Made by a program: the position numbers and the translations under genes. The notes below the pieces were generated by a model. That model saw only the letters and a list, made by a program, of their open reading frames with translations. It did not search any database and had not been told where the DNA came from. Below, one piece after another: positions 58,575 through 64,000 of a stretch of DNA of 64,000 bases (position 1 is its first letter; each line of letters begins with the position of its first letter). The stretch lies in the NCBI RefSeq assembly GCF_000091045.1, contig NC_006679.1, positions 1,021,721 through 1,085,720 on the forward strand, in the 5' to 3' direction. The stretch is from Cryptococcus deneoformans JEC21 (Eukaryota; Basidiomycota; Tremellomycetes; Tremellales; Cryptococcaceae).

Positions 58575-59415
58575 AGTAGGAAGCGGCAAGTGACAAGTGA
58601 CGCAAGGTCCTTGTGAGATATATCAAAAGCAGAAGGCGAAAGCGAATATGCAGACATCAATGTTTACTGCCCCATCATCTAGGCTGTATATATGTTGTGA
58701 CTTCCAGCTTTCAAATCATTGATTGCTTCGGCTTGATAAATCGATTAACAAAGAATGGCTTGTAACTTGTCTCGGAAACAAGTCTGACTTGTAACTTGAA
58801 TCCAATCTTTTTTTCTACCTTCTCCTGCGCCTAATCAACATTTACAACAAGGCAGGCAAGACATGAAGTGACAAAAAGAAGATAAACAAAAGAAGGAAGG
58901 ATAACTACGAAGTAATAATGTGATGGCGCAAAACGAATAACGAGTTACGTCGTATTACCATCTTGACTCCTTGTCGCCGCGTCTTTCTACAGTACGTACG
59001 TACAATGTAGCACGCATGGAGGCGATATGTATGACTACTATTCGGCTATGATGTGAGGCCGTATCCATGCGAGACCACAATTCGGAACACGCCTTCTCTG
59101 GCTCTTCCCTTTGTCACTGTACACACTCTCCAGAATTCAGTATCCATCGTGGGGAATATGGCAACAGCCAGTGGCTGCTCTCGTGGACTGATCTGCTTGC
59201 CATTAAACATCTATAACTGTAATTGTATCTACTCTTAGGATCGTCTTGGACATGTGATTGTATGGCATACAAGTAACATATCTTTACAAGATGATGCCTA
59301 TTCCAACTCCCAATATATACAACAGAAACCATATATACAACAGAAACCAATATGTACAACAAAAACCGCTATCCCCTCCTCTTCGTCCACCCACTCAACA
59401 GCCGAAGCTGTCCCT
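58575..59415. other. Intergenic with short tandem repeat
   Basis: Between the pseudogene and the truncated minus-strand ORF. An 18-20 bp unit (ATATATACAACAGAAACC) is repeated about three times at 59308-59368, in what would be the 3' flank of that ORF. Nothing else can be named. Confidence 0.45.
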
Positions 59416-59737
59416 TCATCCCCGGGCCAACAAGACGCCCATCTGGTCCCGAGTGACCAGCTTCACCCGCACCCCGAGCATCGTTAGGCGGTCCTTAAAG
59501 GCCGCCAACGTAAGCTCGCCCGACTCTGGGTCGATATCTTCAAGGTCGATATCGACAGGGTCGGGCTTGTTGACTATTGGGGGGGGATCATCGCAGAGAT
59601 CGTCAAGGATAAGACCTGCCTTATTGGAGCCAAAGGACGTGTCAAACGACGAGTCCAACTGTCCAGAGGAGTCACTGTCGACGGAGGAGGGAGCCCTAGA
59701 GCATCTGGCACCTACAGTAGATTCGTAAGCGTAACTT
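59416..59737 (-). pseudogene. 5'-truncated ORF ending at a telomere-repeat junction
   Basis: An acidic open frame of about 105 codons reading leftwards: YAYESTVGARCSRAPSSVDS, DSSGQLDSSFDTSFGSNKAG, LILDDLCDDPPPIVNKPDPV, DIDLEDIDPESGELTLAAFK, DRLTMLGVRVKLVTRDQMG and a stop at 59416. It is open up to position 59737, where TTAGGGGG begins, so its 5' part was lost at that junction. I cannot identify it; it might be the C-terminus of a subtelomeric gene or of another mobile element. Confidence 0.55.
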
Positions 59738-59738
59738 A

Positions 59739-59958
59739 GGGGGTTATAGAGGTTGCATTTTTCGTTGTTTAATTTATTGGGTTGTCGTGTGTGTTACCCG
59801 AATGAAAGAAACTACTTAAATAAACAACATTTAAAGAAAAAAGAAAAAATAATCCAACCTCCTCTTCCTCACAAGACCAGCGTCCTCGCCCTCGCCTTTA
59901 CTAACTCGACACCGATCCTTTTCTCCATCTTCTCGAACCCCCCCACCGGCATCGCCTC
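59739..59958 (-). mobile_element. Cnl1-like non-LTR retrotransposon, copy A (5'-truncated)
   Basis: Consists of the element's 3' flank and the last 26 or so codons of its ORF (ending VKARARTLVL in the longer copies), cut after CATCGCCTC. Its inner end is TTAGGGGGTTATAGAGG. It shares sub-type features with copy B (GTGTGTGTTACCCGAATGAAAG). Confidence 0.88.
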
Positions 59959-60442
59959 TTAGGGGGTTATAGAGGTTGCATTTTTCGTTGTTTAATTTAT
60001 TGGGTTGTCGTGTGTGTTACCCGAATGAAAGAAACTACTTAAATAAACAACATTTAAAGAAAAAAGAAAAAATAATCCAACCTCCTCTTCCTCACAAGAC
60101 CAGCGTCCTCGCCCTCGCCTTTACTAACTCGACACCGATCCTTTTCTCCATCTTCTCGAACCCCCCCACCGGCATCGCCTCCCTCCAGTCCTTCCAATCG
60201 TCTGCTGTGCTCCTGCTCATCAAGCCACCAGTGGAAAGGATGATTGGTTTAAAAACCCCACCAGTGACCTTCGGAGCGTTCTTAGAGACGACCTGACCCA
60301 CCTTGTCGAGCCAGTTCACGCACCGGTCCAAGCAGAATTCGGCCAGTTTGCTGTTGGGGGTGCTGGGGGTGGCTGTGCTCCTCGCGTCTCGGTCCCCGAG
60401 GGAGTAAACCTTCAGGTCGTAGTCAGTGAAGGCCAGAGCGCT
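59959..60442 (-). mobile_element. Cnl1-like non-LTR retrotransposon, copy B (5'-truncated)
   Basis: The 3' flank plus about 115 codons of the ORF C-terminus (MDRCVNWLDKVGQVVSKNAP, KVTGGVFKPIILSTGGLMSR), cut after GGCCAGAGCGCT. The 3' flank is identical to copy A and differs from copies C and D at several bases. Confidence 0.9.
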
Positions 60443-63394
60443 AGGGTTAGGGGGTTATAGAGGTTGCATTTTTCGTTGTTTAATTTATTGGGTTGTCGTG
60501 TGGGTTGCCCGAATTAAAGAAACTACTTAAATAAACAACTTTTTAAAGAAAAGAAAAAATAATCCAACCTCCTCTTCCTCACAAGACCAGCGTCCTAGCC
60601 CTCGCCTTTACTAACTCGACACCAATCCGTTTCTCCATTTTCTCGAACCCCCCCACCGGCATCGCCTCCCTCCACTCCTTCCATTCGTCTGCTGTGCTCC
60701 TGCTCATCAGGCCACCAGTGGAAAGGATGATCGGTTTAAAGACCCCACCAGTGACTTTCGGAGCGTTCTTCGAGACGACCTGACCCACCTTGTCGAGCCA
60801 GTTCACGCACCGGTCCAAGCAGAATTCGGCCAGTTTGCTGTTGGGGGTGCTGGGGGTGGCTGTGCTCCTCGCGTCTCGGTCCCCGAGGGAGTAAACCTTC
60901 AGGTCGTAGTCAGTGAAGGCCAGCGCGCTGGAACCTCTGACCCGAAGGTCGTTTCTCCTTTGTCCCGACAGCGTGTGGGGCTCAATCTCAACCGTGGCAC
61001 CTTGGATTTGTTTGAGGTGTTGATAGATGACGCGGTTGATGGCATTGTGCCGGCGCTGGGTCCAGGGGTTGCGGGCGCGGCAAAGCTCGTCGTGACCCAA
61101 AGGTGAGTCCGACCCACAGAAGCGACAGACAGGTATCGAGGAGCCGACCAGGGTGCGGTCGTGGAGACCCGAGGCAATCTCGACGTTGGAAAGGCGCAGG
61201 GGCTGAAGGTAAGGGATGACTGATAACCAACTTCGGCCGAGTCTGGAGGCATTCTCGGTGAGTCGCTTGCGTTCAGTGTCGCCGAGATTATGTAGGATGG
61301 CTTCCTGTTGCGATTCCCAGAGTTCTGCGCATCGAGTTCGTTGGGGGACCGGAGTTGGAGGTTCCTCAGGCGAAGAAAGGAGACCTAGGTTATCGAGGAG
61401 AGTGTCGGAGGCCTCGGCTGCCGAGCGGTAAGCAAGGGGGGCTACATCTTTGAAGGAAAGTAGACCTAGTCCGCCCAGTCGCGCTGGTAGCTTCGTCAAC
61501 GATCTCCCGAGAGCCTCCTCTTCCGCTGTATCCTCTCGCTGCCTCATCCTCATCCTTTTCACCTCCTCCCATAGCATCGTGTCCAGCCTCTCCCATAGGT
61601 CTACAAGGTCGTCCGAGCGCAGGCTTCTCTGCAGGTGTCGTAGATTTTGCTGAATGCAGAAGCGTAATAGAAGGAGCGCGTGTTGATGTGGAAGATCCTT
61701 GAGCTTGCCCACCTTTGCCATTTCCTTCCGAATCCTGCCTTCCAGAAACTCCGCTCGCTTCTCCTTACCTCCTACCATCGTCCCTAGCATCTTGAAGCCA
61801 TCCTGCCTGATCTCATCGAAGCTGATTAACTTGCATTTCTTTTCGTTGAGCTTGATGATGTGCTGCTTGTCGGCGAGGAATTGGGTAGTTTTGCTGAGGA
61901 CTTGCGAGTCGTTTGAGAAGAGGTAGATGTCATCGAGATAAGCGAGCGCTTGCGTAGACGGACCTAGCGATTGACTGAGGGCATTCAAGGTTGGTCGGAG
62001 GGTGATTGAGAAGAAGAGAGGGCCAAAGGGGTCACCCTGTCGAACACCTTGAGAGGATTGAAGGATTTTGTCGCCACACACAAGGTCGGACGAGTCGCCA
62101 TAGGCCCATTTGCAAGTCCTCCAAAGCGTCGGCGCATGGGTCTTGACAGCAGCTGCCATCTCGGCCCTATCTACACGGTTGAAAGCGTTAGAAGCATCGA
62201 GCGAGGCTAAAAAGGAGAACTCAGCGCCGGCAGAACCCTCCAAGACTCTCTCTGTCAGCCTCACGATCGGCTCTACACCACCGATTGACTTGACCCCGAG
62301 CTGGAACGGGAGGAGGAAGTCGGGTTGGAAATGCGAGATGATGAGAGCTTTCGCACATAGCCGATAGATAAGTTCACCAACAGCGATAGGTCGGATAGAG
62401 CCATCGTCCTTCTTCAAGGGGATGAGACGGGATGTGCGAAGCATTGAGCGACCAGGGGCGGTGTTGTTGGCGATGGCGGCGCAGAGGAGTTGGAGAAACT
62501 GCTTGACTGGCTCCCTTTTGGCGGCCGTCTTCAAGAGAGGGACCGACCAGCCACTAACGCCAGGTGCTGTGTCGGGCTTGAAGGAGTCGAGGGCCTTTTG
62601 GATGGTGTCGATGTCGGGAGCTTTACCAGGAGTTGGACCAACTGCATTGCCGAATGGACAAGACGGCCCTTTGGGGTGCTTGGCGATGAGCTGGTCGATG
62701 ACCCCTTGATCGAGTTCGGCTACTGAAGCATCCTCCTCCAACACCCTCTCTGCCGCACCTAGGCGCCCATTCTCAATGAGTTTGATGACTTGTTTGGTGG
62801 TGTCTGGACGAATATTGCTGGGAGGACGACGAGCGGGTGGCTGTTCTGGCCAGGGGATATGCGGGAACTGCTGAAGGAAGGTTGACGGCCTGAGGGGCTG
62901 TTCTGGAGCGAGTGCCTGGGTGAGGCCGACCTTTGGAAGGGCGAGGAATGCCAGCAGTGTAGAATCCGAGGGCTGTGCAATGTAGGCAAGAGCACAACGC
63001 TCGGCGGCGTCCATGAAGTCGGTAACTAGGTTGTTGGGCAGAGGCTTGCTCCGAACAGGCAGGTGCGCAAGGAACAGGAATCTTTCGTTAGCACACTCTT
63101 GGGACGGAAGTAAGGAAGGCAACGTCCCAGGGGAAGGCCCCAGCGTTGAGCTCACCGCGTTCTCGAGCCCTGCTGGGGCAGTTGGGTTGGTATGACTACT
63201 CTCCTCCTCCCCACGATGCTCCTCCTCCGGCGCTGTCATGTTTTGCTCCCTAACTCGCGTGCTACCTTCCTCGGCAGATCTCGGAACGGATTCCGGAGTT
63301 CTCCGGGTCCCTTCCAGCGTGTCAACAGTCTCGGCAACAACCTGAGCGACCTCCAGCACCTCCTCGGCTTCAGACAATGGTTCGAGACCGGCAA
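60443..63394 (-). mobile_element. Cnl1-like telomeric non-LTR retrotransposon, copy C (near complete)
   Basis: A single frame stays open from the 5' junction (63394) to the stop at 60579 and encodes reverse transcriptase and a C-terminal endonuclease; about 135 bp of 3' flank follow, ending CCTCTATAACCCCCTAACCC. It is flanked on both sides by telomere-repeat remnants and by partial copies in the same orientation. The restriction-like endonuclease layout and telomeric position fit the CRE-like clade to which Cnl1 belongs. Confidence 0.93.
60579..63377 (-). CDS. Reverse transcriptase/restriction-like endonuclease ORF of copy C
   Basis: About 930 residues. Order: acidic, Pro-rich N-terminus; SFKPDTAPGVSGWSVPLLKT; RT core with RTSRLIPLKKDDGSIRPIAV, FLASLDASNAFNRVD, SSQGVRQGDPFGPLFFSI and catalytic LAYLDDIYLFSND; the thumb region; then a zinc-binding motif CRFCGSDSPLGHDELC, RRHNAINRV, and a PD-(D/E)xK-like endonuclease core RRNDLRVRGSSALAFTDYDL then KVYSL. 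The N-terminal codon at 63377 is TTG and the frame runs on into the junction (LAGLEPLSEAEEVLEV), with the first ATG only at 63239, so the true N-terminus has been lost. No internal stop or frameshift over 2.8 kb suggests a young insertion. Confidence 0.9.
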   Translation of the reverse strand: MSEAEEVLEVAQVVAETVDTLEGTRRTPESVPRSAEEGSTRVREQNMTAPEEEHRGEEESSHTNPTAPAGLENAVSSTLGPSPGTLPSLLPSQECANERFLFLAHLPVRSKPLPNNLVTDFMDAAERCALAYIAQPSDSTLLAFLALPKVGLTQALAPEQPLRPSTFLQQFPHIPWPEQPPARRPPSNIRPDTTKQVIKLIENGRLGAAERVLEEDASVAELDQGVIDQLIAKHPKGPSCPFGNAVGPTPGKAPDIDTIQKALDSFKPDTAPGVSGWSVPLLKTAAKREPVKQFLQLLCAAIANNTAPGRSMLRTSRLIPLKKDDGSIRPIAVGELIYRLCAKALIISHFQPDFLLPFQLGVKSIGGVEPIVRLTERVLEGSAGAEFSFLASLDASNAFNRVDRAEMAAAVKTHAPTLWRTCKWAYGDSSDLVCGDKILQSSQGVRQGDPFGPLFFSITLRPTLNALSQSLGPSTQALAYLDDIYLFSNDSQVLSKTTQFLADKQHIIKLNEKKCKLISFDEIRQDGFKMLGTMVGGKEKRAEFLEGRIRKEMAKVGKLKDLPHQHALLLLRFCIQQNLRHLQRSLRSDDLVDLWERLDTMLWEEVKRMRMRQREDTAEEEALGRSLTKLPARLGGLGLLSFKDVAPLAYRSAAEASDTLLDNLGLLSSPEEPPTPVPQRTRCAELWESQQEAILHNLGDTERKRLTENASRLGRSWLSVIPYLQPLRLSNVEIASGLHDRTLVGSSIPVCRFCGSDSPLGHDELCRARNPWTQRRHNAINRVIYQHLKQIQGATVEIEPHTLSGQRRNDLRVRGSSALAFTDYDLKVYSLGDRDARSTATPSTPNSKLAEFCLDRCVNWLDKVGQVVSKNAPKVTGGVFKPIILSTGGLMSRSTADEWKEWREAMPVGGFEKMEKRIGVELVKARARTLVL

Positions 63395-63538
63395 GGGTTA
63401 GGGGTTATAGAGGTTGCATTTTTCGTTGTTTAATTTATTGGGTTGTCGTGTGGGTTGCCCGAATTAAAGAAACTACTTAAATAAACAACTTTTTAAAGAA
63501 AAGAAAAAATAATCCAACCTCCTCTTCCTCACAAGACC
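63395..63538 (-). mobile_element. Cnl1-like element, copy D (3' flank only)
   Basis: About 140 bp matching the 3' flank of copy C base for base where I compared it (GTGTGGGTTGCCCGAATTAAAG, CAACTTTTTAAAGAAAAG), cut after CACAAGACC just before the ORF stop region, then TTAGGGTTAGGGTG. Confidence 0.88.
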
Positions 63539-63574
63539 TTAGGGTTAGGGTGTTAGGGGGTTAGGGGGTTAGGG
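63539..63574 (+). repeat. Interstitial telomere repeat tract
   Basis: Mixed TTAGGG, TTAGGGTG and TTAGGGGG units, about 36 bp, between copy D and the island. Confidence 0.93.
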
Positions 63575-63922
63575 AGCACTGCCACCGACTGTCGGGCAGC
63601 CCAACCACCGTTCACCAGCTCTGACTATGGTGCTTTCAAAAAATCGGTGGACGGTTATAATTATTAGGCTACTTACTATTATAAACCACAAAAAAGTGGA
63701 ACGCGCGATGCGAGTGGACAAGGGAAAATAAACGAGGGCCAGGCTTGTTGTTGCTGGCGTTGTGCTCGAGATAAGAAGCAAGGCCGGGACATTAGTACTT
63801 ATGGAGGGGGACTAAAAAAAGGCGGGACACGCGAAGTGTTAATTGGGTTACTAAAAGTGTCTCCATTCGTGGATGAGTACGTAGTTAAGTGACTGAATGA
63901 TTGCGATCGCTTTTTCTTTCCA
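63575..63922. other. Non-telomeric island between two telomere tracts
   Basis: 348 bp with no match to the retroelement copies in this window. It includes a GCGATCGC palindrome at about 63903-63910 and a possible short minus-strand ORF. Origin unknown; it may be a subtelomeric fragment captured at the end. Confidence 0.6.
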
Positions 63923-64000
63923 AGGGTTAGGGGGTTAGGGGGTTAGGGGGTTAGGGTTAGGGGGTTAGGGGGTTAGGGGGTTAGGGGGTTAGGGGGTTAC
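63923..64000 (+). repeat. Terminal telomere tract (TTAGGGGG)n
   Basis: Nine to ten units of TTAGGGGG with occasional TTAGGG, G-rich strand running 5'->3' to the right, which marks this as a right chromosome end. TTAGGGGG is the Cryptococcus telomere repeat. Confidence 0.97.

What the first reader, a model, noticed from the sequence alone, without database searches (positions are those of the whole stretch)
59737..63574. Ladder of truncated telomeric retroelements, each junction sealed with telomere repeat
Four Cnl1-like copies lie head to tail, all with 3' ends inward. Every boundary (59738, 59959, 60443, 63395, 63539) carries TTAGGG(GG), and each copy is cut at a different 5' point. The simplest model is repeated cycles: the end erodes or breaks inside an element, telomerase adds repeats, a new element inserts into those repeats by its 3' end. 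Alternatively each copy inserted by 5'-truncated reverse transcription into telomere DNA. The array may help maintain the end.
Basis: partly seen in the sequence, partly recalled or inferred. Interest (0 to 1): 0.75.

Follow-up and report, generated by a model that had tools for sequence, protein, structure and literature searches.

The report
Telomeric retrotransposon ladder on chromosome 10
One chromosome end of the yeast Cryptococcus deneoformans looks like a layered record of being lost and rebuilt several times, with telomere repeat, pieces of the known telomeric retrotransposon CNL1 and, last, a copied piece of another chromosome.

Summary
Window 59736-63574 lies at the right end of C. 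deneoformans JEC21 chromosome 10: four 5'-truncated CNL1-like copies, 3' ends inward, telomere repeat at all five boundaries. Genome-wide I read 32 CNL1 3' junctions; 24 of 32 (hand count) follow one, often partial, telomere repeat. Three results fit telomerase healing of broken ends followed by element entry into the first repeat: overlap with the telomere register at 16 of 19 truncation junctions (null about 10; P 0.006); the four-G form typical of a first telomerase repeat recurs at element junctions (5 of 18 like-for-like, against 8 of 129 later repeats; P 0.011); and a before/after pair (chromosome 3 and 4 left ends, 1,698 bp at 99.88%) that breaks at the same base, one continuing as telomere, the other as CNL1. 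But the ladder is not four independent insertions: copies 1 and 2 are identical, copy 3 is a mosaic, and the outermost layer is 352 bp identical to the interior of chromosome 3. Recombination therefore probably built part of it. Eight of 29 breaks genome-wide join non-telomeric DNA. All this closely matches published MoTeR dynamics in Magnaporthe: a new member of a known kind, with junction statistics on a point recorded as open for CNL1 (target-site choice).

The parts
59736..59743 (+). one telomere repeat TTAGGGGG at the subtelomere / copy 1 junction
59744..59958 (-). CNL1 copy 1, 3'-terminal ~215 nt only; identical to copy 2
59959..59966 (+). one telomere repeat TTAGGGGG at the copy 1 / copy 2 junction (no overlap)
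59967..60442 (-). CNL1 copy 2, 3'-terminal ~476 nt
60443..60454 (+). AGGGTTAGGGGG, two telomere G-runs at the copy 2 / copy 3 junction; 1-nt overlap (T)
60455..63394 (-). CNL1 copy 3, ~2.94 kb, mosaic (first 379 nt identical to the C5 copy; nt 318-1735 identical to a C8 copy)
60579..63377 (-). open frame of copy 3 (932 aa as listed), reverse transcriptase PF00078, YLDD, R2/CRE-type C-terminal motif RNDL..FTDYD (motif meaning recalled); the 5' part of the element is missing
63395..63404 (+). GGGTTAGGGG at the copy 3 / copy 4 junction; 1-nt overlap (A)
63405..63538 (-). CNL1 copy 4, 3'-terminal 134 nt; no differences from the C5 copy
63539..63574 (+). telomere tract of about five irregular repeats directly on the truncated 5' end of copy 4 (no overlap)
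63572..63923 (+). 352-bp segment 100% identical to chromosome 3 interior (C3:1218364-1218715); its first GGG can also be read as part of the inner tract
63924..63999 (+). terminal telomere repeats of the chromosome 10 right end

Best explanation
The ladder is a layered repair record of one chromosome end carrying the CRE/R2-type non-LTR retrotransposon CNL1. In each round the end is lost back to a point inside the outermost element. Telomerase restarts on the broken 3' end, often at a 1-4 nt seed, and lays down a first repeat. The end is then extended outward either by a new CNL1 copy, whose 3' end enters at a fixed place in the first or second repeat, or by copying from another array or locus (break-induced replication). 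SHOWN by sequence: identity of the parts, orientation, junction position, excess of overlap, the C3L/C4L pair, the duplication, the mosaic, the chromosome 3 segment. INFERRED: that telomerase made the tails, that target-primed reverse transcription placed the elements, the order of events in time, and break-induced replication as the copying route.
For: Element entry: in all 32 junctions read the element begins TTATAG after a G; the pattern search asked for GGTTATAG with up to 3 mismatches, so this is partly by construction, but the independent BLAST search gave the same 32 places. Tract length: 30 of 32 are 16 nt or shorter, against 23-87 nt (median 63, cut by contig ends) for 24 terminal tracts. 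Overlap: 16 of 19 distinct truncation junctions have at least 1 nt, mean 1.68 against 0.93 in the null (P 0.009 for the mean, 0.006 for >=1 nt, 0.002 for >=2 nt). Four-G repeats: 8 of 24 first full terminal repeats against 8 of 129 later ones (P 0.0007); 5 of 18 element tails that hold a full unit (P 0.011 against later, 0.75 against first). C3L and C4L share 1,698 bp with 2 mismatches, the same break and the same first four-G repeat; one goes on as telomere, the other as CNL1. In the stretches held, none of 15 direct CNL1-CNL1 junctions is a nested insertion: every outer copy begins at element position 1-5 and the cut-off part does not reappear beyond it. Recombination: copies 1/2 0 of 215 differences; copy 3 against C8int_4 9 differences in nt 1-317 and 0 in 318-1735; C5L_1 against C8int_1 49 differences up to nt 1697, then 0 to the shared break. 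Capture. De novo telomere addition after chromosome breaks is reported for Cryptococcus, mostly in msh2-mutant crosses (PMC7846113, passages).
Against: Truncation by incomplete reverse transcription gives the same 5' anatomy and is how short new CNL1 insertions are explained (180 bp to 3.5 kb; PMC12810828, passages). All four window breaks have an overlap of only 0 or 1 nt. Of 29 copies with a readable break, 8 are followed directly by non-telomeric DNA and not by a healed tract (hand classes, counted); these were not in the overlap test. One further telomere-capped break (C6R) has no overlap and was left out of the 19, making 16 of 20 (P not recomputed). C3L may have lost an element rather than show the state before one. 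Outer copies are closer to the C5 copy in 8 adjacent pairs, inner copies in 2, with 5 ties, so 'younger outward' is not clean. Copies are related, so the P values are optimistic.
Confidence: 0.66

Rival explanations
1. Serial transposition only: each copy is a 5'-truncated product of target-primed reverse transcription into telomere repeat, and no breakage inside elements is needed.
For: CNL1 insertions in FRR1 range from 180 bp to about 3.5 kb with target-site duplications of 0-13 bp, put down to premature stop of reverse transcription (PMC12810828, passages). LINE 5' junctions often use microhomology (recalled). The window's own breaks have little overlap with the telomere register.
Against: Insertion at random into a long tract would leave long inner tracts; 30 of 32 are 16 nt or shorter. 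Identical copies 1/2, mosaic copy 3 and blocks shared between ends are not simple insertions. The outermost layer is not CNL1.
Confidence: 0.3
2. Recombination only: the whole array was copied in by break-induced replication or unequal exchange from another end, as one amplified block.
For: Blocks are shared between ends with identical breaks and a switch from diverged to identical sequence (C5L/C8int, C5L/C5int), or identical throughout (C3L/C4L); copies 1/2 are a tandem duplication.
Against: 26 distinct break positions among 29 copies with a readable break; no other array held here has the window's run of breaks 221, 482, 2947, 141.
Confidence: 0.15
3. Survivorship: insertion happens anywhere in the telomere, but arrays with three or more interstitial repeats break and are lost, so only short junctions are seen.
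For: In M. oryzae stable interstitial tracts have at most two repeats and longer ones are fragile (PMC7367193, passages). Here 30 of 32 junctions have one or two G-runs.
Against: A filter that passes one and two repeats alike predicts about equal numbers; found 24 single against 6 double by hand (P 0.0007) or 21 against 9 by the script's looser rule (P 0.02). Related junctions make these P values optimistic; not decisive.
Confidence: 0.35
4. End-to-end template jumping by the CNL1 reverse transcriptase made several head-to-tail copies in one event.
For: Arrays are head to tail; some junctions hold only a G-run. R2-type enzymes jump between templates (recalled).
Against: Adjacent copies differ strongly in divergence from the C5 copy in several arrays (C10R_2 and _3: 20 against 3 differences over about 475 nt; C7R_1 and _2: 47 against 22 over about 607), so they are of different lineage; 18 of 32 junctions hold a full telomere unit.
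Confidence: 0.08

Closest known systems
[quoted passage not shown]
   Same: Present in telomeres (PMC7175516, passages); full-length copies in subtelomeric arrays flanked outward by TAACCCCC repeat, about 3.5 kb long (PMC12810828, passages). The best named protein hits are 'hypothetical proteins' of Cryptococcus, JEC21 among them.
   Different: No difference in kind. The statistics here speak to the target-site question that PMC12810828 calls undefined. Priest et al. 2022 (cited there) is not held, so what it already shows could not be checked.
MoTeR elements and MoTeR-driven telomere rearrangement, Magnaporthe oryzae
   Same: 3' end inward in telomere repeat, truncated copies healed by telomerase at short seeds, short interstitial tracts (AGGG to two repeats) at stable junctions, array change by break-induced replication, capture of internal sequence, internal relics (PMC7367193, passages and section 28).
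   Different: MoTeR 5' ends carry TTCGGG/TTTGGG variant repeats; none seen here, but only one near-full-length CNL1 copy was found among the stretches held. Repeat unit TTAGGGGG instead of TTAGGG.
FoTeR elements, Fusarium oxysporum
   Same: Telomere-associated, mostly truncated copies, placed in one clade with MoTeR1 and Cnl1 (PMC12857005, passages).
   Different: FoTeR 3' ends carry 3-7 telomere repeats; here 24 of 32 junctions have one (hand count).
Drosophila HeT-A/TART/TAHRE
   Same: Head-to-tail, 3' ends inward at chromosome ends (recalled).
   Different: They replace telomerase (PMC5537684, abstract start in the search listing); here telomere repeat was seen at 24 of 27 readable contig ends.

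Membership tests
CNL1 family | reverse transcriptase frame close to Cryptococcus CNL1-like proteins | tested here: met
   99% over 100% of the query to P0002 (unnamed); 98% over 56% to JEC21 CNG04710 (P0008, 'hypothetical protein'); RVT_1 E 4.8e-18. That these are CNL1 in the sense of Priest et al. rests on location, size and host; no reference CNL1 sequence was compared.
CNL1 family | subtelomeric, telomere repeat outward | tested here: met
   18 of 32 junctions within 6 kb of a contig end (hand count); the other 14 lie further in, 5 of them on C8, a chromosome with a described fusion history. Genome search counts are lower bounds.
R2/CRE-type non-LTR retrotransposon | single frame with RT, C-terminal zinc knuckle and restriction-like endonuclease | tested here: inconclusive
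   YLDD and RNDL..FTDYD found; the CCHC pattern I used gave no match, though C-x2-C-x7-H-x3-C is visible in the translation; weak R2 structure hits, best E 5.4e-5. Motif meanings recalled.
MoTeR-like telomeric element | 3' end joined to telomere repeat at a fixed place | tested here: met
   32 of 32 junctions read have G before TTATAG, 18 of 32 a full TTAGGG+ unit; a 33rd pattern match on C1 with 2 mismatches was not read. The pattern itself included GG.
MoTeR-like telomeric element | variant telomere repeats at the intact 5' end | tested here: inconclusive
   one near-full-length copy only; its 5' region holds TTAGGGGGTTG but no variant array
Telomerase-replacing retrotransposon (HeT-A type) | no telomerase repeat at chromosome ends | tested here: not met
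   telomere repeat at 24 of 27 readable contig ends; C1L, C2R and C14R stop without it, C9L is withheld

The most novel reading that the evidence does not exclude
CNL1 prefers freshly healed or critically short ends: its reverse transcriptase takes over from telomerase after the first repeat, so the element acts as a competing end-extender and marks past telomere failures. The junctions would then be a readable log of telomere-failure events.
Probability: 0.22. Interest if true: 0.7.

Novelty: new member of a known kind. Interest (0 to 1): 0.4.

Why it matters
PMC12810828 states that CNL1's target specificity is undefined (telomere repeat, itself, or both). The junctions here argue for telomere repeat, nearly always the first one or two, and against nested insertion into itself. 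They also offer a testable four-G signature of where telomerase restarted, and suggest that basidiomycete telomeric arrays are shaped by healing and recombination much as MoTeR arrays are in an ascomycete.

Tried and rejected
Nested self-insertion, rejected for the stretches held: no continuation of a cut copy beyond the copy next to it in any array. Chance telomere motifs, rejected: 16 TTAGGGG in the window against 6.6 expected, 14 of the 16 in the last 4.3 kb. Simple 'younger outward' layering: suggestive only (8 outer closer, 2 inner closer, 5 ties). The empty site of the window's inner junction could not be read: the subtelomere is a repeated family, but the letters of most of its members were not available. 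The 554-bp piece between C7R copies 2 and 3 and the 1.1-kb piece between the C14R copies match other subtelomeres (93% to the C5 right end, 88% to the C1 left end), so of the three intervening pieces examined only the window's comes from a chromosome interior.

Weak points of my statistics. The single-run count is 24 of 32 by hand (G-runs of three or more) and 21 of 32 by the script (any G). The 19 overlap junctions merge two duplicated pairs and leave out C6R (the script found no continuation; overlap 0) and the 8 breaks followed by non-telomeric DNA. The null uses random breaks in one copy and one repeat form. My first four-G comparison used 9 of 32 tails (P 0.0013), but that mixed partial with full units; the like-for-like figure is 5 of 18 (P 0.011). 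Terminal tract lengths are cut by contig ends. Break positions 482 (window copy 2) and 484 (C2L) are only 2 nt apart in different copies; with many breaks in the first 600 nt I take this as chance, untested.

Papers: PMC12810828, PMC7367193, PMC12857005, PMC7175516, PMC2677675 and PMC7846113 seen as passages (PMC7367193 also section 28); PMC5537684 in a search listing only. Priest et al. 2022 and PMC11588098 are not held. I make no claim that the junction pattern is unpublished.
Full report
WHERE IT IS. The window is G000:C10:1021721-1085720, the right end of contig 10 of a 19,051,922-base, 14-contig genome. The total and the contig lengths shown in passages of PMC2677675 Table 1 equal those of C. 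deneoformans JEC21, and one protein hit from a contig of the same length as C7 is named JEC21.

THE OBSERVATION. Four copies of a CNL1-like 3' end lie on one strand, each cut at a different 5' point, with telomere repeat at all five boundaries. Copy 3 (about 2.94 kb) carries a 932-aa open frame with a reverse transcriptase domain, but lacks the element's 5' part. Copies 1 and 2 are identical over 223 nt including the junction repeat. Outside copy 4 and about five repeats lies a 352-bp segment identical to C3:1218364-1218715, then the terminal telomere.

GENOME-WIDE JUNCTIONS. A pattern search found 33 copies of the 3' end, against 0 for the reversed control. 32 were read, the same 32 places that BLAST gave; one two-mismatch copy on C1 was not read. 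Search counts are lower bounds. In all 32 the element begins TTATAG after a G (one has TG in place of GG; the pattern itself included GG). Tracts inside the junction have a median of 7 nt; 30 of 32 are 16 nt or shorter, and 18 of 32 hold at least one full TTAGGG+ unit. Of 27 readable contig ends 24 have terminal tracts, of 23-87 nt, median 63, cut by the contig ends. Requiring three or more G, 24 junctions have one G-run, 6 have two, 1 has three and 1 has four (hand count; the script, counting any G, gives 21, 9, 1, 1).

WHO MADE THE TAILS. At chromosome ends the first full repeat has four G in 8 of 24 cases, later repeats in 8 of 129 (P 0.0007). Of 18 element tails with a full unit, 5 have four G: like first repeats (P 0.75), unlike later ones (P 0.011). 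Truncation points overlap the telomere register by at least 1 nt in 16 of 19 distinct junctions (null mean about 10; P 0.006); adding C6R, left out by the script, gives 16 of 20. Both fit telomerase restarting on a broken end. Against this, the four window breaks have only 0, 1, 1 and 0 nt, and of 29 readable breaks 8 run directly into non-telomeric DNA; 13 are followed by another CNL1 copy and 8 by telomere tract (hand classes).

A BEFORE/AFTER PAIR. The left ends of C3 and C4 share 1,698 bp with 2 mismatches, up to and including the break and the first repeat GTTAGGGG. C3 then continues as telomere; C4 continues as CNL1. The simplest reading is that the element entered the first repeat of a healed end. 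Loss of the element from C3 by a break in that repeat is the other reading.

RECOMBINATION. Copy 3 of the window has no differences from the C5 copy in nt 1-379, but no differences from a C8 copy in nt 318-1735 (9 differences before that). C5L copy 1 and C8 copy 1 differ at 49 alignment columns up to nt 1697 and at none from there to a shared break; the next copy differs first at nt 296. C5L copy 2 matches the C5 interior array from nt 150 on, and the copy after it has no differences over 594 nt. This is the distal-identity pattern expected of break-induced replication or exchange between arrays. Of 29 copies with a readable break, 26 positions are distinct and the 3 shared ones lie in such blocks.

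HOW IT MOST LIKELY WORKS. The end was lost back into the outermost element several times; telomerase restarted; and the end was then extended by a new CNL1 copy or by copying. For the window I infer: element into a healed subtelomere; break at nt 221 and duplication of the same element (copies 1, 2); break at nt 482, then arrival of a mosaic copy 3; break at nt 2947, then copy 4; break or early stop at nt 141, healed with about five repeats; capture of 352 bp of chromosome 3 at a possible GGG match; final healing after CCAA. The order is inferred from position only.

WHAT IS KNOWN. CNL1 in telomeres is known (PMC7175516; PMC12810828). MoTeR work describes healing of truncated elements at short seeds, short stable interstitial tracts, array change by break-induced replication, internal sequence capture and relics (PMC7367193). 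De novo telomere addition at breaks, transposons included, is reported in Cryptococcus, mostly in msh2-mutant crosses (PMC7846113). I therefore file the ladder as a new member of a known kind. What may be added is the first-repeat preference (FoTeR 3' ends carry 3-7 repeats, PMC12857005) and the before/after pair, which bear on the target question that PMC12810828 calls undefined. Survivorship of short tracts is the main rival for the first-repeat pattern (24 single against 6 double, P 0.0007, or 21 against 9, P 0.02, if both were equally likely).

NO SUPPORT for an end-maintenance role: telomere repeat is found at ends with and without CNL1.

Noticed in passing
window 63572-63923: 352-bp segment identical to C3:1218364-1218715 lies between two telomere tracts at the chromosome 10 end; its donor flanks could not be read.
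   Followed up: partly
L005, L009, L056 (G000:C8:250698-263242): Interior CNL1 array of four head-to-tail copies with an inverted relic about 4 kb on; JEC21 chromosome 8 is described as carrying a translocation from a chromosome fusion (PMC2677675, passages), so this may be a former chromosome end.
   Followed up: partly
L010 and L013 (G000:C5 right end, C4 left end): A second element family (60-64% amino-acid identity) shows a similar 3' junction on C4, TTAGGGG then TTTAAGAGGATACAT; sequence like its 3' region lies just inside the C6 right-end CNL1 copy.
   Followed up: partly
L002, C5:1461000-1461060: The only near-full-length CNL1 copy seen ends in a 10-bp tandem of its own 3' end (GGGTTATAGA twice) at the next copy, with TTAGGGGGTTG just inside its 5' end.
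   Followed up: no
window 58900-59737: Subtelomeric sequence inside the ladder belongs to a repeated family: 13 other matches, many near chromosome ends, up to 95% identity.
   Followed up: partly
G000:C4:718778-719061 and C7:961269-962096: Deep-interior CNL1 relics, one with AGGGTTAGGGGG between two fragments, resembling MoTeR relics.
   Followed up: no
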